From a virus, in the IMG/VR virus record IMGVR_UViG_3300034418_005574, positions 1 through 43,314 of that record: 43,314 nt of DNA; one strand, 5' to 3'. Shown piece by piece: positions 8,045 to 33,611 of this stretch (its first letter is position 1; each line of letters begins with the position of its first letter). The notes under the pieces are model-generated. The model saw nothing but the letters and a program-made list of their open reading frames with translations, had not been told where the DNA came from and did no database searches. Made by a program: the position numbers and the translations under genes.

Positions 8045-8353
8045 ATGACTCCGCGACAGCACGAAAACGCATTCACCGTCAATCGACGCCTCATCCCCGG
8101 CTACTACGGGGAAAACGACCTGCCCCGCTACACCTACTGGGTGCAGCACAAGGGCTACCGCCCCCAAGAGGGGCCCTTTAAGACCCGCAAGGAGGCCCTG
8201 CGCGCGGGCTCGCACCAGCAGGTGACTGCCCGCTACCTAGGGTGGACCCGCCGCAGTGTTGAGTCTCCCCCTCAGCTCATGCGCCGCATTGCGCGTGAGG
8301 ACCGTGCCCGATTCATCGAGGCCGCAAACCGTGCCGTGGAGGAGGCCCGATGA
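8045..8353 (+). CDS. Unknown basic 102-residue protein
   Basis: A basic protein with an aromatic strand region (NDLPRYTYWVQHKGYRP) followed by Arg-rich helices to the C-terminus (RRSVESPPQLMRRIAREDRA). It might bind nucleic acid, but no known domain is recognised. The leader ends cccctgaccgaccATG, again without a ribosome site. Its TGA overlaps the ATG of the tiny membrane gene that follows (ATGA at 8350-8353), which suggests coupled translation. Confidence 0.65.
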   Translation: MTPRQHENAFTVNRRLIPGYYGENDLPRYTYWVQHKGYRPQEGPFKTRKEALRAGSHQQVTARYLGWTRRSVESPPQLMRRIAREDRARFIEAANRAVEEAR

Positions 8354-8424
8354 GGCCCCTACTCCGCGCCCTGTTCCCCTGGGCGTTCCACCTGCTCCTG
8401 CTGTTCCTGCTGTGGGCAGCCTGA
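8350..8424 (+). CDS. Putative 24-residue membrane micropeptide
   Basis: A short frame encoding MRPLLRALFPWAF then a Leu-rich run ending LLWAA: two Arg residues near the N-terminus and one hydrophobic helix. The ATG overlaps the stop of the upstream gene (ATGA), which is the best evidence that it is translated. Function unknown; it could be a membrane-active accessory peptide. Such short frames arise by chance in GC-rich DNA, so confidence is moderate. Confidence 0.4.
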   Translation: MRPLLRALFPWAFHLLLLFLLWAA

Positions 8425-8433
8425 GCGCTCCGT

Positions 8434-8447
8434 TATCCAGCTGGATA
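8434..8447. promoter_or_regulatory. Perfect 14-bp palindrome, candidate operator
   Basis: TATCCAGCTGGATA is an exact 14-base palindrome in the 89-bp gap before the DUF932 gene. Just downstream is a 9-bp imperfect direct repeat, ACTTTCCGC then ACTTTCTGC (8462-8479). The palindrome is AT-richer than its surroundings, has no U tract after it, and has a zero-length loop, so a protein-binding site is more likely than a terminator. Confidence 0.5.
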
Positions 8448-8513
8448 GCTAACCCTGACCGACTTTCCGCACTTTCTGCATTCGATCTACCAACCGAACC
8501 CTCTGAACCAACC

Positions 8514-9581
8514 ATGAGCCACAACATCCAAGAGAACGACGCCGCCGCCTTCAACGCCCAGCCCGCGTGGCACGGCCTCGGACAGGTCCTCCCTGAGGGG
8601 GACCTCAACATCGAGCGGGTGCGCAGGCAGCTGCCCGGCTTCCTGTTCCCCATCGAGTCCCGCCCCCTGATCGTGGGGGACCGCACCCCGGTATTCACTG
8701 CCGACGGCGTCCTGGCCGACGGCGTGGTGCCCATGACTGGCGACGACGGCGCGCCCCGTATCGTCCCGGACAAGGTAGCCCAGGTCGCCGGGGACACGGG
8801 CGAGGTGCTCGCCGTGACTGGCGACGGCTACGAAGTGTTCGATAACGGGCAGCTGCTCGACCTCGCCGCGCGCATCAGCGCCTTCGGGGACGGCACGACC
8901 CTGGAGTCCGCACTGACCCTGCGCGGACGGCGCACGGCCGTGGTGCTGGCCCACGCTGGGCAGTTCGTGCTGCCTGGGGACGATGTGAACGAGTCGTACT
9001 ACCTCTTCACGACCACCCACGATGGCACGGCTGCTCTGCAGGTGCTGCCTACTAGCGTGCGCGTGGTCTGCTCCAACACGCTGGCGCTTGCCCAGGCAAG
9101 TAGCAAGAACACCCTGCGAGCGCGCCACACTAGCAACATGGCCGTGGCTATCGAGGCCGGGGTGGAGGCCATGCGCAACGGCGCAGCGTTCCACCGCCAG
9201 TTCGAGCAGCAGGCGCGAGCTATGGCATCCAAGCCTGCTAGCAAGGCCGATGTGCAGCGCTTCTTCCAGGCGGTGTACGAGGCCCAGTACGGGGCGCTGC
9301 AAGCTAACCCCAAGACGCGCGGCGAGAAGGCGCGCTACACCCGCGCGGTGGACATGGTCGCTAGCTGGACGCGCAACCTCGACGACCCGAAGCAGCGCAT
9401 GCAAGGCAGCACCACCGTGTGGTCGCTGTTTAACAGCGTGACCCAGTACGCAGACCACGAGTCCAATGTGCGCCGCACTAACGGCGAGACGGCGACCTCT
9501 GCCCGCAACCACTCGCGCCTGTTCGGTCAGGCCGGGAAGCTGAAGGACGCTGCCCTGTCCCAGGCCCTGGCCCTGGTCTGA
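8514..9581 (+). CDS. DUF932 (TIGR03299-like) phage/plasmid protein
   Basis: A 355-residue protein starting MSHNIQENDAAAFNAQPAWHG; the AWHGLG block near residue 20 and the central strands up to the VRVVCSNTLALA segment are hallmarks of the DUF932 family found in many phages and plasmids. The biochemical role is not established; these genes often lie in early regions with small unknown genes, as here. The ATG at 8514 is chosen because the family starts at this M-S-H-N-I sequence; the frame is open to 8256 but that part overlaps two other genes. There is no Shine-Dalgarno site (ccaaccATG). A strong UUCG hairpin follows the stop. Confidence 0.85.
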   Translation: MSHNIQENDAAAFNAQPAWHGLGQVLPEGDLNIERVRRQLPGFLFPIESRPLIVGDRTPVFTADGVLADGVVPMTGDDGAPRIVPDKVAQVAGDTGEVLAVTGDGYEVFDNGQLLDLAARISAFGDGTTLESALTLRGRRTAVVLAHAGQFVLPGDDVNESYYLFTTTHDGTAALQVLPTSVRVVCSNTLALAQASSKNTLRARHTSNMAVAIEAGVEAMRNGAAFHRQFEQQARAMASKPASKADVQRFFQAVYEAQYGALQANPKTRGEKARYTRAVDMVASWTRNLDDPKQRMQGSTTVWSLFNSVTQYADHESNVRRTNGETATSARNHSRLFGQAGKLKDAALSQALALV

Positions 9582-9693: not shown

Positions 9694-9987
9694 ATGACTA
9701 CTACCAAAGCCAACAAGCGCCAGTCTCATACCCTCTTCACCCACCTCGTCGGCAGCCGCAAGAAGGGCGGCAGCATCACCGTCGAGTGGTCCGCGCCCGA
9801 GAGTAACGGCAACTACATCCCCGTGTCCCTTGTTGACACGGTCCACATCACCTCGCCTACGGGCAACCGTAGCACCTACGAGTTCGACCCTGGGGACACC
9901 CGCGTGACCATGCTCCTCGATGCCTGCGATGTGGCATGGACCAAGGGCCACGACTACGCGCTCGACCCGTTCGGATCAAAGGCCTGA
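9694..9987 (+). CDS. Unknown 97-residue protein upstream of the ribozyme
   Basis: A basic-start protein (MTTTKANKRQSHTLFTHLVG) with alternating hydrophobic stretches suggesting a small beta domain (SITVEWSAPE, VSLVDTVHITS). The family is not recognised. Its TGA (9985-9987) forms part of the outer stem of the hammerhead ribozyme that follows, so its mRNA would end with the ribozyme after cleavage. The leader is pyrimidine-rich (cttagttcccc) with no ribosome site. Confidence 0.65.
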   Translation: MTTTKANKRQSHTLFTHLVGSRKKGGSITVEWSAPESNGNYIPVSLVDTVHITSPTGNRSTYEFDPGDTRVTMLLDACDVAWTKGHDYALDPFGSKA

Positions 9988-10043
9988 CCCGCTGACGAGT
10001 CCCGAGGCGTCGGGACGAAACGCCCTTCGGGGCGTCCGGGACG
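9985..10043 (+). ncRNA. Type I hammerhead self-cleaving ribozyme
   Basis: All conserved parts of the hammerhead core are present in the right order. CUGACGA is at 9992-9998 (CUGANGA consensus). Stem II is 9999-10004 with 10011-10016 (GUCCCG/CGGGAC, loop AGGCGU). GAAA is at 10017-10020. Stem III is 10020-10025 with 10030-10035 (ACGCCC/GGGCGU, UUCG loop). The cleavage triplet is GUC, with cutting expected after C10036. Stem I is open-ended: 9988-9991 (CCCG) pairs with 10037-10040 (CGGG), then an A-A mismatch and two more pairs using the stop codon. Open stem I makes it type I. It lies between two early genes on the sense strand, so cleavage would split the mRNA and leave a 5'-OH leader of 43 nt before the next ATG. 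Confidence 0.93.
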
Positions 10044-10051
10044 CACACCCG

Positions 10052-10068
10052 GCAGGCACGGTGCCTGC
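10052..10068 (+). promoter_or_regulatory. Leader hairpin just after the ribozyme cleavage site
   Basis: GCAGGCA CGG TGCCTGC forms a 7-bp stem with a 3-nt loop, 15 nt downstream of the predicted cleavage site and 11 nt before the ATG at 10080. After cleavage it would sit near the new 5' end of the downstream mRNA, where it could protect the 5'-OH transcript or affect ribosome entry, since no Shine-Dalgarno site is present. The structure is seen in the sequence; its role is inference. Confidence 0.6.
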
Positions 10069-10079
10069 ACTAGACAACC

Positions 10080-10370
10080 ATGAGCAACTACCCCAACCTT
10101 CCCCGCACCGCCTGGATCGTGTGCTTGGATGTTTACCACAAGGGCGAGGGCCTCGCGTACACCATGACGCGCCGGGTCTTTCTCGACCGAGAGCAGGCCC
10201 AGCAGTATTGCGAAGCCAAAGCAGCCGAGTCTGACTACAAGTGGTCTTGGGTTGCCAAAGAGTGGTGCTCCAGCTGGCAGCGCGACGGAAGCATGAAGAC
10301 GCAGTACCGCATGTACATCAGCGAAGGTCGCCTGGAGCAGCCCGTTCCCCAGCAGGAGGAGGTGCACTGA
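10080..10370 (+). CDS. Unknown 96-residue protein downstream of the ribozyme
   Basis: A Trp/Tyr-rich protein starting MSNYPNLPRTAWIVCLDVYH, with an Asp/Glu helix (LDREQAQQYCEAKAAE) and a second aromatic section (WSWVAKEWCSSW). The family is not recognised. Its mRNA would be the 3' product of the hammerhead. The start is ccATG with no ribosome site. The next gene begins 1 nt after its stop and its SD (aggagg) lies in this gene's last codons. Confidence 0.65.
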   Translation: MSNYPNLPRTAWIVCLDVYHKGEGLAYTMTRRVFLDREQAQQYCEAKAAESDYKWSWVAKEWCSSWQRDGSMKTQYRMYISEGRLEQPVPQQEEVH

Positions 10371-12499: not shown

Positions 12500-15400
12500 T
12501 TAGGGTGTAGCCCCGTCTCCCCGGATCGGCGGGACGATGACGGTGATCTTGTCCCCGCCATACGGGCTGGGCTCGTCATACGCAGCGGTCTGGTCGCTCG
12601 ACCATCCCAGGTGCCGCGCATAGTAATTGACCGTGTGAACCATGCCGGGGATCGGCCTGTCCTGCCCCGTGAGCGTGGTCGGGGGGACGTCCACATGGAT
12701 CATTACAGCCACGACGGTCGGGTCGCGCTCGAACTTCAGCCGGAACTGCGCCCCCTCTTCAAGAGCAGGCCGCCCGAAGGCCTCTGCCGAGGCAATGCTG
12801 CCCGGACTAAGCTGGATGAACGCCGTAAGTGCAGCCGTGCCAAAGGCTTCCGCGCTTTGTACGGCGACTGGACGGACCTGACCAGCCGCGTCTAGAACCG
12901 GGGTGCCGAAGGCCTCCTGGCTAGCAATGCCGGTGGGCTCGACGGGTGGCAGCGCCGTGCTGATTGTGGGTGTTCCGAAGGCCTCGTCGCTACCGATTGC
13001 GGTTGCCGTGGCCGTGACACCCCCGGCCTGTACGGTTGCTGTTCCGAACGCCTCTACGGACGCGATCCCTGTGGCGGTTACGGTGACAGCGCCTGGAGTC
13101 AGGGTCGGGCTACCGAACGCCTCGCCGCTGGCGATGCCCGTAGCAAAGAGGGACTGGGCGGGGGCCGCACCCTGCGACACGGAGGGAGTTCCGAACGCCT
13201 CGCCGCTGGCGATGCCTTGCGGGCTTACCTGCACCGTACCGGCAGTCGCAGTTGGCGTCCCAAACGCCTCGCTAGACGCAATTCCCGTAGCTGTTACGGT
13301 CTGTGCCGCACCACCGCCGCCACCGCCGACGTCGGGCTGCTGGCCCAGGACGAAGTAGACACCGTGCCTGCCTGCGACCGTATCCTGGGATGGCGTCCAA
13401 CCAATTGTCACCTCGCCAGTCGTGTTGTTGACCGACGAGACATATGCGTGCTTCTCGCCAGGGCTATAGTCTGCTGCTCGATAGTAGAGCGAACTGCTGT
13501 TAGGCAGGTTCTGGGGCGTGGTGCGCGCAACGATGTTCTGCTTGACCGTGAGGTTAGCCGACGATGTGGAGCCCATACCGAAGGCGCCTACCGTGGTGTC
13601 GCTCTCGTCGAACACCGTACCCGTCCAGGCCTGCGAGTACGACGAGTCTTGGTTGGTCGTGGCGTTTACAATGCCACAGACCATGCCGTCGATGACTCCG
13701 GGGTTGGTGACGGTCGGGCTCGGCGTGAACGCGGTGGAAGTGTCCGTGTCGTTCGTAGCTTGGCCCGTGGCGGCACCGTCGAGGTACAGGCCAAGGCACA
13801 TATACCGAAGGCCCCAGGTCAGGTTGGTGCTTCCGATGGTTAGGTCTAGGTCGTTGCCTGAGATGGCTCCGCTGACCTGATAAAACCACTTCCACTGGTA
13901 GTGGGCGTCCGTTCGCGAAGTACCGGACACCACTCCATTATCGAAGCCGCCCTGCACGGTACGGATAGCCCCGTCCGACTCAAGTGCGTGCTTCTCCAAG
14001 ACTGCGTTGGAGTCTCCGTTGCTGTTCAGCCATGCCCGGTTTATGCCGCAGTTCTCAAGGCGGCGGCTGCCCAGGGTTGCCATGTCCGGCACCGAGATGA
14101 TGTTGACAGCCTCCAGGCCGGTCAGGCTGCTGAAGGTGACCGTGTCAACTGTGGCTGCCGTTGTCGATGAGATCCAGTCTGATCGAGCCTCCGCCTCGAC
14201 GTTCGGGCCGCAGATGGCGTAGCCCGTGTAGGTCATCTGGGTTCCGCTACCGCTGGGCTGGGTGGCCCAGGTGACGGTGAACCCACTGGTCGTATGGGAG
14301 GTGTACGAACACTTCGCGAAGGTCGAGTCCGCAGACTCGTCGTACAGGTGCAGCAGGGACGAGTTAATCGACGACGACATGTCGCCAAGGTTGGCCCCCG
14401 TGGCTTCGTCCCGGTGGGAGGAGTCAGAGCAGAACTCGTTGGTCAGGTCCGTGAAGCCGTAGGACTCCATGGGACCGTTGCCGGTTGTCGAGTTGGAGGG
14501 GTCGTTCTGTCCCTTCGCATCAACCGCGAAAATGATGATCGCCTTGAGATCGGAGGCGGCATCTAGGGCAGTATCAAACGAGATCGTCGAGGTACTACCT
14601 GGGCTGCCCGAGATAGTCCCTGCGAAATGTCTGTAGTAAACCTTGCCCACCGAGGCCTCGAAGGCCCCAGGGTTGCAGGTCGCGCCGCTGCGAGCCACGC
14701 CGTCGATGTCGGTGGTCGGGACATCGCTGTTTACCGAAGGCCCGACGCCCTGCTGCCAGACATCGTTCTCCGCGACGTTGTAGAGCCGCCCCGTCGCCGC
14801 CTTGTAGATGGCCCAGTCGCCAGCGCCGGGCGAGGTGTTGGTCGTTGGGGTGATCGGGTAGGGGCTGCCCTGGATGGCGACGGGAAACGGGTTGGTCGAG
14901 CCGCCGAAGTTGTTAGAGCCGGTAACTGTGACGGTGCCGCTAGCGGTGTAAGCCCCGCCCGCACCTCCTAGGTGTAAGTGGTTGACGAACTCGGCGCTGA
15001 TCGTCGCCGTGCTAGACTGAGCTATGCGAATAGCGGCAACAGAAGTTGGGCCATTCTTTACGGTGCAGTTGCGTACACTTACTGATATCGTGCCAGATGA
15101 GGCATTTGGATAGATCGCGTGGCTGACGGAACTCAGGACGCAGTTTTCTACGGCTATATCTACAGAATCATAGTAGATAACCAGACCCTGCGAGGCTGCA
15201 TCAACAATGCAGTTGCGAACAGTCAGGCCTGTGAGTTGCCTGATATTGAAAACCTGACTGCCGGTCCCGTTGACCTCCATCCCATCGAAGAGCATGTAGT
15301 CATCGCGGAATACCATGAAGTACGAAGCATTGATGACCACTCCAGCGCCGGGCACACCGCCATGCTCGCTGCCAGCAGCAGGCTTGTAAGTCACATTGCG

Positions 15401-23639: not shown

Positions 23640-26600
23640 TCAATCTGCCCTGTACCCCTGCTTGCGTAGTTCTGCGCGAGTCGCCGCCGCTCGCTCCTGA
23701 AGCTGCTTTAGTGTAACCGCCGGGCGCTTGCGACCGGAGACTGCTTCGCGCACAGATGCCTCGTATGCCTTGATGATCTCGGACTGCGTCTCCGTGATGA
23801 TCGTCGCGTATTCCGCGCGCTCCTCTTCGGTCTGCGCGGCCCTCATAAGGCGGCGCACCGGGGACAGATCGCGGTGGACCTCCTCGAACACCAGACCGAA
23901 CCCGTAGCTTAGCTCGTACTTCTCAATCGACTGCTCGTAGCGCTCAGGGTCGGTTTTCTGCATCTCGTCGATCATCTCTACCACGCGTCCTGTCTGCTCC
24001 CGGATCTCATAGAAGTTCCGCTGCACGGGCAGTTCAGGCGTCTTGTAGATAAACGACCCGGCAAAAGGGTTCTTATCCGGGCGGACTGGAGCGGCCGCCT
24101 CCTTGTACACCTTGCCCACGGTTCGCCAGATGTCGCGACCTAGCGAGCCGAAAAGGCTGTTCATCACGTGGTCGAAGTTGTCTGGCGTGAAGTCGCGCAC
24201 GCTGTCCATGGGGCTTGGCTTCATAGCGTCGCCTCCAAGGACCTCGAATATCGCCTTCGTGGCCTCCTTTGCCGCACGGCTCGCGTCTGGCGTTTTCAGG
24301 TGGTCTGGCAGGTTGCGCTCCAGAAGGAACGGCGAGCTAATGTCGCCTCCGTACCACGTCACGTTCTCTCCAGCCTGAACGAACGGGTCGAAAACGCTAG
24401 GCGCGATGAGTTGACCAAACGTGGGGCCAGACGGCAGCGGGTTGAAGGTCTGCAACGCCGTCACCATCAGGTCGTAGCCCGACTCTGTAGCCTCCTTGTC
24501 GCCCATAGCCATAGCCATCATTTCCTGGCCTAGCGCCCAGAACACGTTCAGCCCGTAGGAGACGGGCATCTGGAAGTACGTGTCCCCGATGGGAATGATC
24601 GCGGTGCGGTGGCGGCGATGCGCCGGGATCATCGCGTACTCGTACTCGTCGTCAGGACCTTGCCCCATCAGGCCGCGCATCATGACGTAGTGGACAGCGC
24701 CCGACATCGCGACCCCGCCAAGGAACGCCCGGAATCGACGGCTCTTCCGGGCAGCGCGGATAAAGTTCATCGAGCCCTCGAACCCTGCGTTGAAGAACAT
24801 CGTGTGGACGTTGACCCAGGGTCCGATGTAGCCCATTCGGTCAAAGTTCACGGTGGACTCCTTAGCCAGGAGCGCGGCCTCTGCCTCGCTGGCCCCAGCA
24901 TCCAGGGCTGATTTGAACGCCGCAAGCCGCACAACCTCTTCGCTAGTCTGCGAGCCAAACTCAAGCGCGATGCCCATCATGTTCATCACTTTGGACAAGC
25001 TGCCGCGCTCTAGCTCTCGCCTCAGGTCGCGGCGCACGTTCTCAAGGCTCACGCTTTGGCGCCACCCAGTAAACGCGCCCGCTTCACGCGCCCTGCGATA
25101 CAGGTCCGCCATCTCGCCCTGCGGCGACTGCTGCATGTTCATGGACGCCACCGCTGGCGCGACAAGGGCTATGTTCTTGACGACGTCGGCAACGCCGATG
25201 TTTAGGCCGCTGTCCTTCCAAGCTTGGCTTTTGGCTATTGCGTACTCGATGTCACGGAACGCGTTGCTAACGCTGAACGTTGGCGACGCAGTCGTATTGA
25301 GGCGCGCTTGCGTTCTAGTCACAGCCCGGAACGCTTTCATGAACTTGGGCAAGGAATCCACGCCTACGCTGGCAATGGATCGCGCAAGATCAGGGTCGGC
25401 CAGCCGGATGCTGTGCGGCACGCCCTTGATGTTTAGCCGGAAATGGGTGTCGCGGTTGCGACGGCTGTAGCGCTCACCAGGGCGCAGCCTGCGAACCTCA
25501 AGTACCTGACGGGGAACCTGCCTAGCAATGTTGTAGAAGGCGATGCCGACCTCGTTGGCTACGCCTCGCTGAATGGCCTCGTAGGCCTGATTCAGCACAT
25601 AGACGACAGGGCTGTCCGGGCGACTATCGCGGCCACCACGCAACAGGGCCACCGGACCCCATGTCGAGAAGCCACGGCGCTTGTTTAGCGGCGACGGCTC
25701 TGAGTAACCCTCGTCCGTCTCCCAGCCACGCAGCGGAACGTAGTACTTGAACTTGTTCCACTCGTCGTACTGCTCCTGGCTAATAACCTCGGTCTGCAGC
25801 AGGAGGTCACGCGTCTCAGCAACCATCCCGTCAATGCGGCGCGCGAGCGCGGCAAACTCCGGGTACTTCTGGCGCAGCTGCTTGACGAGGTCCTTGGCCT
25901 GATCAGTCTCGTACACCTCGTACAGCAGGCGCGGGCGTATGGCGCGAGCGGTGGCCCTATTCCGCTTGATCTCGTCGCGCATAGCCTTGACCTCAGATGC
26001 GGTGAGGAATCTGACGTTCGTAGCGGTTAGCACATTGGGGTCGTCCGACTCCAAGACACGCCCGGCAAGCTGATCAGCTAGCGCATCTGCCTGCGCCTCT
26101 AGGGCATCAGCCTGCGCCGCGCGCTGCTCTAGCACTGCGTTAGCCTCAGGGGCGTGACGCGCGATGAGGAAGTCCTCGAAGTCCGAGAAGGCCTGCCTGT
26201 TATCGAGGCCCGCGCTCCTAGCGGCCTTGAGGAACGGAGCCAGATGCCGCTCATTGAAGCCAAGAATCAGACCGCTTTCGCGGCTGGCGGATAGCTCGGC
26301 TTTCCGCAAGGGGCTCCTTTCTGTCGGCAGGTTGGCAAGCCGAGGGTCGATCAGGCCGATGTATTCCTCGAAGTCGGCAAGCCTCGTGTACCTGTCCTTG
26401 ACCTCCGCCCACACGCGCCGCGTTATGCGCATGTTGGGCATCGGGGCGATGGTGTCAGTGTTCGGAGCAATGACGGGGGGCGCCCCACGGAATTGGTTCT
26501 GGAACTCGCGCTCTACGTCCTGAGCGGCGCTTGACTCCATGGCCCTGATGACAAGGCCCATCATTCGCAGCGCGCGTTGGCGCTCGACGTCAGCTGAAGC

Positions 26601-29600
26601 GTCCGATTCGGCAAACAGCTGCTGCCTCATGCGGCCCAGCAAGTGCAGCTGCACCACGTTGTTAGATAGCTCAAGCCCCGGTGCCGCGAAGCCGCCGATC
26701 ATCATGTTAGCGCGCGCAGACTGCAGGCCGTACTGATCGTTCAGGTCCTCTATGCCGCGAGTGCTTTCTGCAGCCTCGATAAGCGGCGGCAGAATCCCGC
26801 TCACCGACGCCGAGATCTGAGACTCTTGCTCCTGAGACAGGTTGCGCGCGTAGTTGTCTAGAGCGCGGAAGTACGCGTCCTGTTCGCGCTGGAACTCTGG
26901 CTCGTTAGCCAGCATCTCCTCCCTGGTCATGGACTGACCAAGAGGCAGAGCAAACTGGCTAATGAGATCGCGATCTACGCTAAAGTCTCTGCTCAGCGCG
27001 CCAGAGGCCTTCAGGGCCTCAACGGTAGCGTCTAGCTCTGACTGTCCGGGCTTTGGCGCGAGTCGGCTCGGCTCTCGTTCCTCAATGTTGTCGGCTCGGA
27101 ATCGGGCGACGCCGGGAATCCACGATAGCGCGTCAAGATCTCGGCTAGAGAGGATGCGCCCAACCGACTGGACGTACTCAATCGCACTTTGTTGCGCTTT
27201 CTTTGACTTGCCCTTCGGTCGTCGGGCGTATTCGTCTGGCGTGAAGAATCGGGGTACTCCATGTGTGTCCTCAATAACGTAGCCACGGGTGCCGTCTGAC
27301 AGGTACACGAAGGCCTGCTCAAACGTGTCTCGGCTCTGACGCCCCTCAATGACGCCCAGGCCTGCGATGTTGCCGTCGCCCGTAAAGCGGCGAAGGCTAG
27401 CGTGACCAACAGCCTGTGACGACACAAGCAGCCACGACTCCCAGTGGTAGCGGCCGACGTCGGGCTGACGATTCGTTCCTTGATAGGCCTCGTCAAGAGC
27501 GCTGCGCATGCCGCGCTCCATGCCCTCGTACAGCGCTAGCCCAGAAGGCCCGTCAAGAATGTCGGCTACACCGGCCGTGACCGGCTTGCCCTTCTTGTCG
27601 AACTGGCCTGGGACGACGACGCCGTCGTACGGGTCAACGGGCTTCTTGGCCTCACTGAACTGGGGCCACATGTTGCGCGCCTGCCAGCGGTCGATGACGA
27701 ACACGTCTCGCTTGCCAGCGATAAGCATGACAAACGAGGTTAGCTTCGTGCCCATGCCGCTTTGACCGGCGTGGGACAGGAACAGGCGACGGACGTCGCT
27801 TCCAGTCGTGTTCGGATCCTCCAGGGCCTCGTGAACCACCTGCATCAGCGGCCGACCGTTGACGCGAGCGTTTGCCACGTTGCCAGCCCAAGACGTGTCG
27901 CGCCCCTCGCTACCGCCAATAGCGTTGAGGTTGGTCTTGGCGCTAGACATCCACTCGCCGTGCAGCTTCTTCTTATCCTCTTCCGCCAGGACAGGCAGCC
28001 ACCCCTTGACCCAGCTAGCCCACTCCTGCTCGTCGGCCTCGGTCCACTGCCCTTGCGCGATTCGCTCTGTGAACCGCGACAGCCCGTTTTCATAGGCCAT
28101 GAGGAACGCCGACTCGTGCGGCGCAGCGCTTAGCATGCGGCTCAAGAACGCCCACACGAACAAGTCTGCCGTGTCTGTCGGCGTCATCTCGCCGTTTTCG
28201 TAGCGTTGCCGCAGGACATCGGTTAGCTCGATGCCCTCATTGGCGTGCATGATCTGGTCAGCGTCCAGATTCGACAGTTGCTCGCGCAGCGTCTCAGGGT
28301 TGCGCACCCCATCGATCAAGCGCCGAGGCGGCGCGACGCTGAAGTCATCGCCAAACGCCGTCTTGACCAGCTTGTGCCACATGCGCGTGCTGGTCAGAGG
28401 GTTGGGAATCAGCCGCTCTAGGTTGACCAGCTGCGTAAGGTTGGCCTCACGGTTGCTGTCGTTGAACTTCTGCGTCAGCTTTGTGAAGTCAGGCACAGGC
28501 GCCTGATTCGTCGTGACCTGCAGAGGCGCGGGCAAGCTCTTGGGGGCAGCAAACCGCGACCGGCGGTCTAGCTCCTCTTGGCCGACCTCCTCGACAAACC
28601 GTCGAACGTTTTCTACGTCCTGCTCGGTGACCATACCGGCCACAGATGTACGCAGAGCCTCCTCTTGAGCCTCAAGACGAGTCATGCCGCCTTCGGCCAT
28701 GGGGTCAATGCTGTCCGCTAGCGAGCGAAGTCGCAGAGCTAGTTGCTCCTGTTCAGTTGCGCTAGCTAAAAGCTCACGGTCCATTGCCGCGTCACGTAGC
28801 TGCTCTTGATCGTATAGCAGTTCATTCCGACGCTGGTCTAGCGCAGATACGCCACCGGCTGGCTGCGCAATGGTTTCTACGTCTCGCTGACTGAGGTCGT
28901 CGAGACGGTCAGCCATGCCGAGTTCTGTGCGCCGCTGGTCATCAAACCGATCAAGCGCTTCCTCTAGCGGGCGAGCCGCCGTTTGGCGCTTCCGATTATC
29001 TGACAACCTTCGATACGGTGCATCGAGGGTTGCGCGCGCTGCCGTCATATCTACGTCTGTTCCCAACGCGACTGTCGTCAGCGCACGTGAAATGTCTAGC
29101 AGACTGCCCAGGACAGACTCTTCTATCTCATTCCCGCGACCCAGCAGGTTCTCCTGCCCCATAGCGGCCCGCTCCGCAATAGTTGCTCCGCGTCGGAACA
29201 CAGCCGAAAGTTCCGGGAACAGGCCGAGTCGATTGATGATGCTGAGGCCACGATCCTCAATCGCGCGCGCCATCATCTCGGCGGCCAACTCACCACCGCG
29301 AGCAAAGTCGGCGCCAATCATGTTGTAGAAGCGCGGGCTTTCGAGGTAGTACGGTATTTGAGCGGCATCCTCTCCAAATAGCTCAACCAACTCCTGCGTC
29401 AACAGCTGGCTGTCGCTGTCGCGCAGCATAATGTCGCGCAGCCGCGCAAACATTTGGACCACAGCGCCAGCCTTCTCGTTATTGACCATGTCGTCATACG
29501 AGATCATGTGCCCCAGTTCGTGCAGGAACGTGGTCCCGTATGTGGCGCGCTGCATGCCCTTGCGCCGCACATCACTGTATTGGCCGGGATTCATGATCAG

Positions 29601-32600
29601 GCGCCCGGCATGTGCTTGAGTGGAATATTTCACAAGCGCCGCTGCGCCTAGCATGCCCGGACGCTCGCGGAACCGCAGCTGCAGAACTGTGTCGCGCACG
29701 CGCTCCTGCGGCAACGACATGAGCATGAACGAGTAGGCAATAACCTGCTGCTCGCTAAACAGACCGTTGCGGTACAGCGCCTCCAGCTGCTTGGCCGCCA
29801 TATCCAGCGGCGACCCTTGCGGAGCTTGCTCCATAACCCCCGGCAGAGGAATCCGACTCCACGGGGTCATTACCGGCGGCGGCAAAACCATGTCGCTTAG
29901 GTCGTACCCGCTGACATCTTCGCCCCGCCGCTCAGCCTGCCGGACAATGGCTTCAGCCGCCTGCTTGTCTACCTGCGTGCGCCGACGATTTTGCGGGGCT
30001 CTCCCAGGCGTAAACATCTTCGCCTGCTCTGCCTGGGCCGCAGCCATTTCGTCCATAGGCGTGGGAAGGCCAACGATGGCGCCGGGCTGCCTACCGGGCA
30101 TGGGCCTATCGCTCGCCTTTGGGCGTCCCGGCTCTGTGCGCGGCCGCGCAAACCGCGACTGCCCACGCAGCGCGTCTTGAGCAGCTTGGCCGATACGCTC
30201 CTGATCGCCCAGGGTCGGGTCTGCTACGCCCTCGACAGGAGTCAGTCGGTCTACAGCGACGACATCACCTGTTTCCAACCGCGCTCGCTGCGCGCCTTCG
30301 GGGCCAGTCACGTCTACAACGCGAACTGCGTCCGGGGCCCCAGGGCCACGGATGGGAATAAACGCCTCCTCACCCTCTGCGGCGGTTACGGCGTTGCGCA
30401 CCATAGAGCCCGGCGCAATAGGCATGGACGCCGGGCCCTGTAGCTCGACGCCCTCTTGCGCAGACACAAGGTCATCCAGCGGGACGGCAATGCGCCGATT
30501 GAGCGCTGCGTTGCCAATGCTGGCGTACTGGACGCCCTCGATGTCGTAGACGTTCTCGATGACCCAGGGGTCGCTTTGCTGAGTCTCCCCGATCTTGCGC
30601 GTGTAGTTGCTGTTGCGCTGGCGCAGACGCACCGGAGCGCCCTCTACAAGCTCGCGCGACAGTGGGGTGCTGCCACGGAACGGGCTCGGCTGCTGTGCTT
30701 CTACGCGCGCCTGAAGCTCATCCAGAGGCAGGCCCTGTAGCTCCCCCTCAAGGTCGCCAAGCAGCTTGTCAGACTCGCGCTCCAGGGCGCGTATCTCTTT
30801 CTTGAGTTGCTGTCGTTTCTGGCGAGGCATCGTCGCGGGAGCCGCCTCAAGCTCCTGGCGCAGCGCTTCCGCCTGATTGCGCATGCGCAGCGCCGTCTCC
30901 ATCGTCAGGCGCACAGCCTCCTGCTCAACGTCTACGTCTGCCGCTTGAGGCCGTTGTACGGACGGTGCTTGAGGCTCTCCTTCTACAGCAGGCTCTACCG
31001 GCTCCTGCGGTGCGGCGGGTTCAGCCGCAAGCTCAGCCAAAGACTCGTCCAAAGCTTCGCGCAGCGGCTGCGTCAGGTGCTGCGTCTCGGGCGCGTCAAC
31101 GGCGTCGGTAATCAACTCGCGCGCCTCTGCGGACTGCTTACGGCCACGCACAATAGCGGCCACATCCATGGCCTCTAGCAGCGAATCAACTGCCGTGGCT
31201 CGGTCCACTGCGTCCGCAGGGTTATCCACGCCGCCCATTAGGCCAGCTTCCTGCAGTCGCTGTAGGCCAGACGCCTGCACGTCCATCTGCAGCATCTGGC
31301 GCGTCTTGCGCCACACGCGCTCTAGCAGGTTGCCGTCACGGCCCAGTAGGTCGCGCATCGCCTTGCGCACCTCACTGCGCTTGGCCCCCTGCGTCGCTCC
31401 AAACAGTGTGCGCCAGTTGCGCTGGGCAATGGTAGCTGCAGCCTCATCGGCAGATACGTCATCCTGTAGGTCAGCGCGGACAGGCAGACCAGCGGCTTCG
31501 GCCTCCGCGTCGTACTGAGCGCCCGCATCCTGCCATTCCTGAGTGGACTCAGCAGCGCCCACCATGGTGCGCCAATCTTCGCCCAGCACATCGCTGACCG
31601 AGTGCCAGCCCTCGTGGTAGGCAAGCTCGCCCAGCGCCTGCGACACCGCCCCGCCCTCTTCCTCGGTGCCGAACGTGTCGCTGTTGATAAAGATGGTCCC
31701 ACGGACCTGACGGTTGTAAAAGCCACCGGCTTTGGCTTCGTTCTCAGGCGTGCGCTCGCCTGGGCTGTAGAACCGGAGGTTGATACCCATGTTGCCCAGC
31801 GCCTCGACAACCGTCTCTGCGCCTTCGGGCATCTCGCCCTCACGCAGATCGTAGTTCTGCGCAAATTGCTGCAACTCCTCCGTCGTTGCCGCTGCCGCAC
31901 GGTCGGTCCCAGCTAGCCTCTCAGCTGCCTCGCGGCGTCGGCGCATTCCGGGATCCTCCACGAGCGGCCGCACGACTTTTCCGGCAGCGCCCAGACCTTT
32001 GCGGGCAAGCTGAGTGCCGCCCATCGTTCCCGCGACAGTCAGCGCCTCGACGATCCACTCGTCGATTGTCGGGAACGCATCCTCCCAACTGCCCGTCTCT
32101 TCCTCGCCGGTCAGCCAGCCAGCCTTGCCCGCGCCAACCTCCATAAAGCGCGCAGCCTGCTCCTCAAATAGCTCGACCAGCGTGCCCTTAACGCCAAATG
32201 GCGCCACGGGCACAAGGTTGCGCAAATCATTGCGCGCTACCATCGCTGCCCACTCCGCAGGCGAGATCCCTGGGAAAATCGTGCGGCCAAGGGGGTAGGA
32301 CTGCGCAGCGGCCCCGTACTGCTTCAGCACGTTGCCCTGACCTGGGAAGAGGATGTTCGACACGCGCTCCGACGCGTACTCGATCAAAGCCTTGATGTGG
32401 TCGGGCCAGTCGGTTTGCTCTAGCGGTTGTGTCGCAAGGCTTTCCCATTGCGGCTTCATCGGATCGTCTCCGAAGCCGGTGATGATAGCTGCGTTTGCTA
32501 GCGCCTCTTCGACGTTGATGCGATCCGCAAGGCCATAGATAGGAATCTCGTCCGCTGCACCAGTGGCCGTAGACAGCAACACAGATGCGCCGACGTTGAC

Positions 32601-33611
32601 CCCGTACTGCTCTGCCAGCGCCCACCCCTCGCCTGCGGTGCGGGTAGCCAGATTTGCGACGCCTTCGGTGGCCTGCGCAGCGCGCGCGACGAAGCCTGTT
32701 CCGCTAGCGGCGTTGCGCAAGTGCCCCAGCATGCCTGCCTGCATGCTGCGCATGATTGAGTTGCGAACACCGGCTTCCGTCGTTTCGGCGCCCAGCTTTT
32801 TCATTGCTGCGCCGAAACCGGCTTTCAAGCCAGCCCGTATGCCTCGGGCGCCTAGCCCGCCGACGAACATGTCGCCAACGAACTGCAGACTCGTCATCAC
32901 GCCGTCATAGACCTGCGCGGCGGTCGTCTTCGGGCGATAGGTGTCAATCAGGTACTTGGTGATCCGCTCGTCTTCCTCAAGCGTCGTTTTGCCATCTGCG
33001 GACTTCTTCAGAAGACCGTAAAGCTCGATGTCGCTACGAACGTCCTGAATCATGCCCCAGACCGGGATCAGGGTTTCGTAGTCATAATCGGCTACGGCAT
33101 CCAGCACATCCTTCTCAGGCAGTGCCGAGATCCAGTCCTGCATCAAGTCGCCGTAACCGGAGAAGGCTTGAGCGTAACGGCCATCCGTCGTGCCCATCAT
33201 CTCGTCTAGGCGCGCGCCAAACGCCCGATCAGTATCCATGCTGAACTGATTGAGCAGCTGCGCGCGTATGATGCGCGGGTCGGATCCGTTACGCAGCAGC
33301 TTCTCGGTGATGCCCAGGATCTGGTGAACGCCCCCAAGCCGACTCTCAATCAGTTGCCGGTCCTCCTCGGTCGTGAAGAGGCTGCGGAACATTTCTGGCG
33401 CTTGAGTGGCCTCAACTGCTGTAGCAATGATGCCCCGCTCGTTTTGCTTGAGCGGCTTTAGGTCTAGTTCGTATGCGTCTAGCCCAAAGTCCTCTAGGCC
33501 TAGGTCCCTGGCCTTCATGACGGTCTGCAAGTACGTCCATCGCTCACGCGGCTCTTGCGTAGCCGGATCGGCGGTAGGGTCCAGAGCAGGGGACTTGGGC
33601 TCGTTGATCAT
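23640..33611 (-). CDS. Giant polyvalent/internal virion protein, 3,323 residues
   Basis: By far the largest gene (9,972 bp, 23% of the genome). It carries two HExxH zinc-protease motifs: H666-E-G-W-H670 (AYHEGWHS) and H1364-E-L-G-H1368 (FLHELGHM). Around residue 1970 is a segment GKRDVFVIDRWQARNMW. The last 600 residues (ASPTFSVSNAFRDIEYA onward, with FLGGVAMSGAVHYVMM) resemble the LPD38-type domain of phage polyvalent proteins, which are packed in the capsid and delivered with DNA. Between are long helical, Gln/Arg-rich spacers. In short-tailed phages such giant proteins (e.g. T7 gp16, N4 vRNAP) help DNA entry or protect it. The ATG overlaps the upstream stop by 4 nt. Confidence 0.8.
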   Translation of the reverse strand: MINEPKSPALDPTADPATQEPRERWTYLQTVMKARDLGLEDFGLDAYELDLKPLKQNERGIIATAVEATQAPEMFRSLFTTEEDRQLIESRLGGVHQILGITEKLLRNGSDPRIIRAQLLNQFSMDTDRAFGARLDEMMGTTDGRYAQAFSGYGDLMQDWISALPEKDVLDAVADYDYETLIPVWGMIQDVRSDIELYGLLKKSADGKTTLEEDERITKYLIDTYRPKTTAAQVYDGVMTSLQFVGDMFVGGLGARGIRAGLKAGFGAAMKKLGAETTEAGVRNSIMRSMQAGMLGHLRNAASGTGFVARAAQATEGVANLATRTAGEGWALAEQYGVNVGASVLLSTATGAADEIPIYGLADRINVEEALANAAIITGFGDDPMKPQWESLATQPLEQTDWPDHIKALIEYASERVSNILFPGQGNVLKQYGAAAQSYPLGRTIFPGISPAEWAAMVARNDLRNLVPVAPFGVKGTLVELFEEQAARFMEVGAGKAGWLTGEEETGSWEDAFPTIDEWIVEALTVAGTMGGTQLARKGLGAAGKVVRPLVEDPGMRRRREAAERLAGTDRAAAATTEELQQFAQNYDLREGEMPEGAETVVEALGNMGINLRFYSPGERTPENEAKAGGFYNRQVRGTIFINSDTFGTEEEGGAVSQALGELAYHEGWHSVSDVLGEDWRTMVGAAESTQEWQDAGAQYDAEAEAAGLPVRADLQDDVSADEAAATIAQRNWRTLFGATQGAKRSEVRKAMRDLLGRDGNLLERVWRKTRQMLQMDVQASGLQRLQEAGLMGGVDNPADAVDRATAVDSLLEAMDVAAIVRGRKQSAEARELITDAVDAPETQHLTQPLREALDESLAELAAEPAAPQEPVEPAVEGEPQAPSVQRPQAADVDVEQEAVRLTMETALRMRNQAEALRQELEAAPATMPRQKRQQLKKEIRALERESDKLLGDLEGELQGLPLDELQARVEAQQPSPFRGSTPLSRELVEGAPVRLRQRNSNYTRKIGETQQSDPWVIENVYDIEGVQYASIGNAALNRRIAVPLDDLVSAQEGVELQGPASMPIAPGSMVRNAVTAAEGEEAFIPIRGPGAPDAVRVVDVTGPEGAQRARLETGDVVAVDRLTPVEGVADPTLGDQERIGQAAQDALRGQSRFARPRTEPGRPKASDRPMPGRQPGAIVGLPTPMDEMAAAQAEQAKMFTPGRAPQNRRRTQVDKQAAEAIVRQAERRGEDVSGYDLSDMVLPPPVMTPWSRIPLPGVMEQAPQGSPLDMAAKQLEALYRNGLFSEQQVIAYSFMLMSLPQERVRDTVLQLRFRERPGMLGAAALVKYSTQAHAGRLIMNPGQYSDVRRKGMQRATYGTTFLHELGHMISYDDMVNNEKAGAVVQMFARLRDIMLRDSDSQLLTQELVELFGEDAAQIPYYLESPRFYNMIGADFARGGELAAEMMARAIEDRGLSIINRLGLFPELSAVFRRGATIAERAAMGQENLLGRGNEIEESVLGSLLDISRALTTVALGTDVDMTAARATLDAPYRRLSDNRKRQTAARPLEEALDRFDDQRRTELGMADRLDDLSQRDVETIAQPAGGVSALDQRRNELLYDQEQLRDAAMDRELLASATEQEQLALRLRSLADSIDPMAEGGMTRLEAQEEALRTSVAGMVTEQDVENVRRFVEEVGQEELDRRSRFAAPKSLPAPLQVTTNQAPVPDFTKLTQKFNDSNREANLTQLVNLERLIPNPLTSTRMWHKLVKTAFGDDFSVAPPRRLIDGVRNPETLREQLSNLDADQIMHANEGIELTDVLRQRYENGEMTPTDTADLFVWAFLSRMLSAAPHESAFLMAYENGLSRFTERIAQGQWTEADEQEWASWVKGWLPVLAEEDKKKLHGEWMSSAKTNLNAIGGSEGRDTSWAGNVANARVNGRPLMQVVHEALEDPNTTGSDVRRLFLSHAGQSGMGTKLTSFVMLIAGKRDVFVIDRWQARNMWPQFSEAKKPVDPYDGVVVPGQFDKKGKPVTAGVADILDGPSGLALYEGMERGMRSALDEAYQGTNRQPDVGRYHWESWLLVSSQAVGHASLRRFTGDGNIAGLGVIEGRQSRDTFEQAFVYLSDGTRGYVIEDTHGVPRFFTPDEYARRPKGKSKKAQQSAIEYVQSVGRILSSRDLDALSWIPGVARFRADNIEEREPSRLAPKPGQSELDATVEALKASGALSRDFSVDRDLISQFALPLGQSMTREEMLANEPEFQREQDAYFRALDNYARNLSQEQESQISASVSGILPPLIEAAESTRGIEDLNDQYGLQSARANMMIGGFAAPGLELSNNVVQLHLLGRMRQQLFAESDASADVERQRALRMMGLVIRAMESSAAQDVEREFQNQFRGAPPVIAPNTDTIAPMPNMRITRRVWAEVKDRYTRLADFEEYIGLIDPRLANLPTERSPLRKAELSASRESGLILGFNERHLAPFLKAARSAGLDNRQAFSDFEDFLIARHAPEANAVLEQRAAQADALEAQADALADQLAGRVLESDDPNVLTATNVRFLTASEVKAMRDEIKRNRATARAIRPRLLYEVYETDQAKDLVKQLRQKYPEFAALARRIDGMVAETRDLLLQTEVISQEQYDEWNKFKYYVPLRGWETDEGYSEPSPLNKRRGFSTWGPVALLRGGRDSRPDSPVVYVLNQAYEAIQRGVANEVGIAFYNIARQVPRQVLEVRRLRPGERYSRRNRDTHFRLNIKGVPHSIRLADPDLARSIASVGVDSLPKFMKAFRAVTRTQARLNTTASPTFSVSNAFRDIEYAIAKSQAWKDSGLNIGVADVVKNIALVAPAVASMNMQQSPQGEMADLYRRAREAGAFTGWRQSVSLENVRRDLRRELERGSLSKVMNMMGIALEFGSQTSEEVVRLAAFKSALDAGASEAEAALLAKESTVNFDRMGYIGPWVNVHTMFFNAGFEGSMNFIRAARKSRRFRAFLGGVAMSGAVHYVMMRGLMGQGPDDEYEYAMIPAHRRHRTAIIPIGDTYFQMPVSYGLNVFWALGQEMMAMAMGDKEATESGYDLMVTALQTFNPLPSGPTFGQLIAPSVFDPFVQAGENVTWYGGDISSPFLLERNLPDHLKTPDASRAAKEATKAIFEVLGGDAMKPSPMDSVRDFTPDNFDHVMNSLFGSLGRDIWRTVGKVYKEAAAPVRPDKNPFAGSFIYKTPELPVQRNFYEIREQTGRVVEMIDEMQKTDPERYEQSIEKYELSYGFGLVFEEVHRDLSPVRRLMRAAQTEEERAEYATIITETQSEIIKAYEASVREAVSGRKRPAVTLKQLQERAAATRAELRKQGYRAD

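What the first reader, a model, noticed from the sequence alone, without database searches (positions are those of the whole stretch)
9985..10043. Hammerhead ribozyme between two early phage genes
All core elements are seen: CUGACGA, stem II with a 6-nt loop, GAAA, stem III capped by UUCG, a GUC cleavage site, and an open stem I that uses the upstream stop codon. Hammerheads are established in some phages, but one placed exactly at a stop codon in an early operon, with UUCG-capped stem III, suggests programmed mRNA cutting. Cleavage after C10036 would leave the ribozyme as a 3' tail on the upstream mRNA and a 43-nt leader on the downstream gene. It could set the relative levels or stability of the two genes.
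Basis: partly seen in the sequence, partly recalled or inferred. Interest (0 to 1): 0.93.

Follow-up and report, generated by a model that had tools for sequence, protein, structure and literature searches.

The report
Phage hammerhead ribozyme fused to stop codon
A metagenomic phage carries what looks like a genuine self-cutting RNA (a type I hammerhead ribozyme) that starts right after the stop codon of one gene and probably cuts the shared messenger RNA so that the next gene gets its own leader; the same stop-codon-plus-ribozyme module occurs, often as a series, in many other phages.

Summary
Window 9985-10046 (+) holds a complete type I hammerhead: stem I CCCG/CGGG, core CUGACGA/GAAA, 7-bp stem II, UUCG-capped stem III, GUC site cut after C10036. 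Rfam's Hammerhead_1 model scores it 30.0 bits (E 1.3e-5 for 351 bases, 0.0016 for the window), just under its 34-bit cut-off, so routine annotation misses it. A covariance model built from 38 other phage hammerheads, window left out, finds it at 67.6 bits (E 2e-13). No such match arose in 1000 simulated windows. An otherwise almost unrelated phage has the same ribozyme, leader and downstream gene: core unchanged, stems II and III each with a compensated pair change, a 29-nt leader stretch identical. Homology starts at the ribozyme; the upstream gene differs. The stop-codon placement recurs: in 55 related phage hammerheads the stop abuts stem I in 25 and is the core UGA in 11. Some phages carry four or five copies, between successive genes. 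Most likely role: cutting a polycistronic phage mRNA into smaller units with a defined 5' leader. Phage hammerheads flanking genes have been known since 2011, so this is a new member, well supported by sequence; cleavage itself is untested.

The parts
9694..9987 (+). upstream gene (97 aa, no family match), stop codon UGA at 9985-9987
   Evidence: ORF, translation; GC by codon position 0.52/0.50/0.83 supports coding; no Pfam or PHROG match; not related to the gene at this place in the relative G001
9985..9987 (+). stop codon of the upstream gene, directly abutting stem I
   Evidence: sequence; the same position is the stop in 25 of 55 subfamily members
9988..10040 (+). type I hammerhead ribozyme (stem I to stem I)
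   Evidence: RF00163 30.0 bits at 9986-10042; own model R1 67.6 bits at 9985-10046
9992..9998 (+). catalytic core CUGACGA
   Evidence: invariant except N7 in 38 aligned relatives, most of it part of the search pattern
9999..10016 (+). stem II, 7 bp, loop GGCG
   Evidence: three of six counted pairs with changes on both sides across relatives
10006..10009 (+). loop II GGCG; G10007-C10008-G10009 can pair with C10042-G10043-C10044 (predicted pseudoknot)
   Evidence: loop-tail complementarity above shuffled pairings: 21 of 35 versus 8.6 expected, 0 of 2000 shuffles
10017..10020 (+). core GAAA (A10020 pairs with U10035)
   Evidence: part of the search pattern in relatives
10020..10035 (+). stem III, 6 bp, loop UUCG
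   Evidence: three of five pairs with changes on both sides, all cells paired
10034..10036 (+). GUC, predicted cleavage after C10036
   Evidence: established hammerhead rule NUH (PMC3088659)
10037..10079 (+). 43-nt leader that would become the 5' UTR of the downstream gene
   Evidence: leaders of similar length in relatives, median 38.5 nt
10042..10044 (+). 3' tail CGC, predicted partner of loop II in the pseudoknot
10052..10068 (+). perfect inverted repeat GCAGGCAC-G-GTGCCTGC, leader hairpin
   Evidence: identical in G001 within a 29-nt identical stretch although the downstream gene differs at about 29% of aligned bases
10080..10370 (+). downstream gene (96 aa, function unknown, no Shine-Dalgarno)
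   Evidence: 59% identical protein in G001; no family match; no SD-like motif upstream

Best explanation
This is a functional type I hammerhead ribozyme that cuts a phage polycistronic mRNA in cis. Shown by sequence: the complete conserved core, three stems of which II and III are kept by compensatory changes in relatives, a predicted loop II to 3'-tail pseudoknot, fusion of the ribozyme's 5' edge to a stop codon, and a conserved leader hairpin before the next gene. Inferred: soon after it is transcribed, and once the upstream ribosome has terminated, the RNA folds and cleaves after C10036. The upstream mRNA then ends just past its stop codon in a compact folded ribozyme with a 2',3'-cyclic phosphate. 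The downstream mRNA starts with a 5'-OH, followed by a short leader whose first bases can pair (CGGG/CCCG) next to a second hairpin. The result is separate mRNAs with structured ends, so the two genes can be expressed and can decay independently; the module travels with the downstream gene.
For: Rfam RF00163 match. None in 1000 simulations. Model without the window finds it at E 2.2e-13. Homologous site in G001/L129: only N7, one stem II pair (U-A to G-C), one stem III pair (G-C to A-U) and the stem III loop region differ; a 29-nt leader stretch is identical. Same 31-nt core plus stem II with a different stem III in another phage, L004. Of 132 unique pattern hits in which stems I and III were not part of the search, 97 form both stems versus 0.6% with shuffled flanks. 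Covariation score 0.387 versus 0.103 shuffled, and at most 0.108 when slid. Homology with G001 begins at 9983, the ribozyme edge, and the upstream proteins are unrelated. Arrays of four to five copies, with stop codons at model position 1 after successive genes. Perreault et al. 2011 (PMC3088659) showed cleavage in vitro of phage-type arrays and in vivo, in E. coli, for one of them.
Against: No cleavage assay and no RNA data. The score is below Rfam's cut-off. Stem I is only 4 bp, and the computed fold of longer transcripts prefers competing pairings (among them CGGG/CCCG in the leader) over stem I by 1.5 to 7 kcal/mol (tertiary contacts not counted), so cutting must be fast or helped by the pseudoknot. 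Only one copy in this genome and only one diverged homologue of this exact site. A simple sigma-70 scan found no promoter between ribozyme and downstream gene, but other promoter types are not excluded, so co-transcription of the two genes is assumed.
Confidence: 0.85

Rival explanations
1. Translation-gated ribozyme: because the stop codon touches stem I or lies in the core, a ribosome terminating on the upstream gene covers stem I and the core and keeps the ribozyme unfolded; cutting happens only when translation of the upstream gene is low, or after release, so the ribozyme couples mRNA cutting to translation. (A refinement of the best explanation, not exclusive with it.)
For: Stop abuts stem I in 25 and is the core UGA in 11 of 55 subfamily members, against about 0.5% per position at random points; the trinucleotide before stem I varies when the stop lies elsewhere, so the stop, not the ribozyme, seems to fix that position; upstream coding sequence can misfold with the core when not covered.
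Against: The same placement is expected if selection only keeps ribosomes from running through the ribozyme and keeps the gap short. Nothing here measures an effect of translation.
Confidence: 0.2
2. Mainly a 3'-end device: the ribozyme ends the upstream transcript (a terminator substitute), and the leader has no special role.
For: In G001 two type I copies sit behind a gene and just before a sigma-70-like promoter, where cutting would trim read-through; no terminator-like site follows the ribozyme on the + strand.
Against: In the window and its homologue no such promoter follows, the leader hairpin is kept without change, and the ribozyme is homologous together with the downstream, not the upstream, gene.
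Confidence: 0.25
3. Decayed or inactive hammerhead-like sequence, or a stable double hairpin (terminator or pause) that resembles one.
For: Below the Rfam cut-off; short stem I; competing fold.
Against: Every catalytic position is intact, changes in the homologue are compensated, dozens of relatives form all three stems, and no U run follows.
Confidence: 0.06

Closest known systems
Type I hammerhead ribozyme, Rfam RF00163 (Hammerhead_1)
   Same: Same permutation, core CUGANGA/GAAA, NUH site, three stems; matched over all 45 model positions
   Different: 30.0 bits against a 34-bit cut-off; short GC-rich stem I directly behind a stop codon; GGCR loop II with a predicted pseudoknot to the 3' tail
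Clustered hammerheads flanking genes in prophages (Perreault et al. 2011, PMC3088659)
   Same: Hammerheads between phage genes, several per operon in relatives, pseudoknot between stems I and II, genes not constant, an anti-restriction gene downstream in some (ardA there; ArdC in G001/L089 here)
   Different: The main text of that paper does not mention stop codons; the window itself has a single copy
RiboJ, the engineered hammerhead insulator (sTRSV ribozyme plus 23-nt hairpin, described in PMC8794103)
   Same: Works alike in design: a hammerhead that removes upstream RNA, followed at once by a hairpin in the new 5' UTR
   Different: RiboJ is man-made and removes promoter-derived leader; the window element is natural and cuts between two genes. 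Resemblance only, not kinship
Theta ribozymes of phages (HDV-like; PMC10879173)
   Same: Another self-cutting RNA that phages use to trim transcripts, there at tRNA 3' ends
   Different: Different ribozyme class; no tRNA here
RAGATH-1 hammerhead (RF03152)
   Same: Hammerhead core; weak match 16.4 bits
   Different: Far below the 56.3-bit cut-off; the additional upstream stem of that model is not matched well

Membership tests
Hammerhead ribozyme, type I | Catalytic core CUGANGA ... GAAA ... NUH | tested here: met
   9992-9998, 10017-10020, GUC 10034-10036
Hammerhead ribozyme, type I | Three stems, stem I open-ended and stems II and III capped | tested here: met
   Descriptor match 4/7/6 bp; folds of 9980-10046 and 9985-10044 give it
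Hammerhead ribozyme, type I | Stems conserved by covariation among relatives | tested here: met
   Stems II and III covary; stem I is invariant there because it was in the search pattern, but its pairs vary widely in the set not chosen on stem I
Hammerhead ribozyme, type I | Score above the Rfam RF00163 gathering cut-off | tested here: not met
   30.0 versus 34 bits, E 1.3e-5. A curation threshold, not a defining trait; none of six phage records with relatives passes it either
Hammerhead ribozyme, type I | Stem I - stem II tertiary contact (loop contact or pseudoknot) | tested here: inconclusive
   3-bp pairing GCG/CGC predicted in the window; loop-tail complementarity enriched in the subfamily; not shown physically
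Hammerhead ribozyme, type I | Mg2+-dependent self-cleavage leaving 2',3'-cyclic phosphate and 5'-OH | not testable with these tools
   needs RNA
Phage operon-processing hammerheads (Perreault 2011) | Lies between co-directional phage genes | tested here: met
   Genes 9694-9987 and 10080-10370, both +; phage contig with terminase and portal
Phage operon-processing hammerheads (Perreault 2011) | Several copies flank genes in one genome | tested here: not met
   One copy in the window; relatives have four to five
RAGATH-1 hammerhead (RF03152) | Score above the family's gathering cut-off | tested here: not met
   16.4 versus 56.3 bits

The most novel reading that the evidence does not exclude
A phage-borne subfamily of type I hammerheads in which the stop codon of the preceding gene is built into or directly against the ribozyme, used in series as portable gene separators, and whose cutting is gated by translation termination on the upstream gene.
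Probability: 0.2. Interest if true: 0.75.

Novelty: new member of a known kind. Interest (0 to 1): 0.5.

Why it matters
The biological role of phage hammerheads has been open since 2011. The stop-codon-abutting, leader-carrying modules found here, often in series in relatives, give a concrete and easily tested hypothesis (one cut per gene end, possibly tied to translation), and they show that Rfam's cut-off hides this subfamily from routine annotation. They also look like natural counterparts of the RiboJ insulator of synthetic biology.

Tried and rejected
Terminator reading: no + strand terminator-like site at the element. Other ribozymes in the window: none; sX6 and mir-583 hits are weak and off-topic. 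Leader hairpin as a general part of phage hammerhead leaders: rejected, 55 leaders have a mean z of -0.25. Hairpin as a repeated operator in the window: only one weak partial copy at 13355. Annotated phage records: no relative of the region or of the downstream protein; the 61-base query gave mostly short stem III look-alikes in Streptomyces phages. Downstream protein: no family, no relative in bacterial genomes, structure model poor (pLDDT 57), so no fold search was made. The first translation of the G001 upstream gene used a wrong frame and was redone. Bacterial genomes: nine pattern stretches in the whole collection; by eye L201 forms a full type I hammerhead, three others (L202, L203, L206) are hammerhead-like, and the rest look like chance. 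The codon-position test of the downstream gene was flat (26/27/30), so it adds no proof of coding; the coding call rests on GC by codon position and the conserved open frame.

Full report
What is there. The window is a 43,314-base virus record with terminase, portal, tail and recombination genes, so a tailed phage. Between two co-directional small genes, 9694-9987 and 10080-10370, lies a complete type I hammerhead: stem I 9988-9991/10037-10040, CUGACGA 9992-9998, stem II 9999-10005/10010-10016 with loop GGCG, GAAA 10017-10020, stem III 10020-10025/10030-10035 with loop UUCG, and GUC 10034-10036. Rfam gives RF00163 30.0 bits, E 1.3e-5 in a 351-base search and 0.0016 over the window; the gathering cut-off is 34, so the default search is empty. 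The minimum-energy fold of 9985-10044 is exactly this structure. A structural descriptor finds it once and finds nothing in 1000 simulated window strands of the same dinucleotide make-up.

Relatives. Two near-identical records, 3300025771_000096 and 3300006874_000315, carry the same site. A third record, L004, has the same 31-nt core and stem II but another stem III. Most informative is G001 (L129/L130, 41.3 kb), with the partial record L089 that carries the same site: it aligns with the window over 9983-10359 at 73% identity and, by DNA search, nowhere else; a protein-level comparison adds one further clear shared stretch near 18.7-19.0 kb. Thus homology begins at the ribozyme's edge, and the genes upstream are unrelated. 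In the ribozyme the only differences are the free position N7, one stem II pair changed on both sides (U-A to G-C), one stem III pair changed on both sides (G-C to A-U) and a longer stem III loop region; 29 leader bases that include the hairpin are identical, while the downstream genes differ at about 29% of aligned positions (26, 27 and 30 of 96 by codon position). I take this as selection on both the ribozyme and the leader; the flat codon-position pattern suggests that the gene itself evolves fast.

A subfamily. Among its 132 unique hits, stems I and III were not part of the pattern, yet 97 form both (0.6% with shuffled flanks), and their stem I and III pairs vary widely. A second scan for members with the window's stem I sequence was complete: 73 stretches, 75 unique sites, 55 of them type I. 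From 38 of these, without the window or its near-identical copies, I made an alignment, counted pairs (covariation score 0.387 versus 0.103 in shuffles) and built model R1. R1 finds the window at 67.6 bits, E 2.2e-13, once. The G001/L089 homologue of the site was in the model, so the test is independent of the window but not of its relative; the members were also chosen by a pattern that the window fits, so this E-value measures fit to the subfamily rather than an unbiased discovery.

Stop codon. In those 55, the stop of the longest upstream open frame abuts stem I in 25 and is the UGA of the core in 11; at random points the rate is about 0.5% per position. Members from one contig or close contigs are not independent, and GC-rich frames stay open easily, so the counts are approximate. 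In L147 and L143 several successive genes end exactly at the first three positions of the model. G001 has five hammerheads in 3.3 kb, three type I and two type III.

Pseudoknot. In the window G10007-C10008-G10009 can pair with C10042-G10043-C10044. Across 35 distinct loop/tail pairs of the subfamily, 21 have at least three Watson-Crick pairs in register versus 8.6 in shuffles, none of 2000 reaching it. Perreault et al. found that such a pseudoknot is critical for fast cleavage in the ribozymes they tested and predicted one in about 40% of hammerheads.

How it most likely works. Cutting after C10036 separates the two coding sequences. The new 5' end CGGG can fold back on CCCG 10047-10050 next to the GCAGGCA hairpin; both sequences are conserved in G001. 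The same pairing competes with stem I before cutting (stem I is 1.5 to 7 kcal/mol less favourable in longer transcripts), so I infer fast, co-transcriptional cutting followed by refolding that makes the cut hard to reverse. This step is inference. Downstream genes of the subfamily are not constant: they include DUF932, a MoxR-type ATPase and an ArdC-type anti-restriction gene, in line with the ardA of the 2011 paper. That the module works like the engineered insulator RiboJ (ribozyme plus hairpin) is an analogy.

Known or new. Hammerheads between phage genes, in arrays and with pseudoknots, were described in PMC3088659, including cutting in vitro and in E. coli. The window is a new member of that kind. 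The stop codon directly against the ribozyme and the portable ribozyme-leader-gene block are, as far as the open papers I searched show, not described, but most subscription papers were not searchable and that paper's supplement was not read.

Noticed in passing
L130 7160-7230 and 7540-7605 (minus strand): Two type III hammerheads in G001 carry, just upstream, GACACC-UCCG-GGUGUC, a hairpin that would compete with stem III and looks like the 3' half of a type I copy; possible origin of one permutation from another, or a switch.
   Followed up: no
L130 4640-4700, 5660-5730, 6740-6800 (minus strand): Consensus-like sigma-70 promoters (TTGACA..TACAAT, TATACT, TATGCT) and leaders with GCGGG..CCCGC-type hairpins followed by an ACAGCCATG-type start, without Shine-Dalgarno, recur before genes of the G001 array, whether the 5' end would come from a promoter or from a ribozyme.
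   Followed up: partly
window 10080-10370: The downstream gene lacks a Shine-Dalgarno while most of the following genes have one (10372, 10575, 10817, 11332); its divergence from the G001 homologue is about equal at all three codon positions.
   Followed up: partly
window 8256-9581: A DUF932 protein lies just upstream of the gene before the ribozyme; a DUF932 gene also sits directly behind a hammerhead in L103.
   Followed up: no
window 23640-33611: A 3323-aa open reading frame on the minus strand, very large for a 43-kb phage record; not examined.
   Followed up: no
   Followed up: partly
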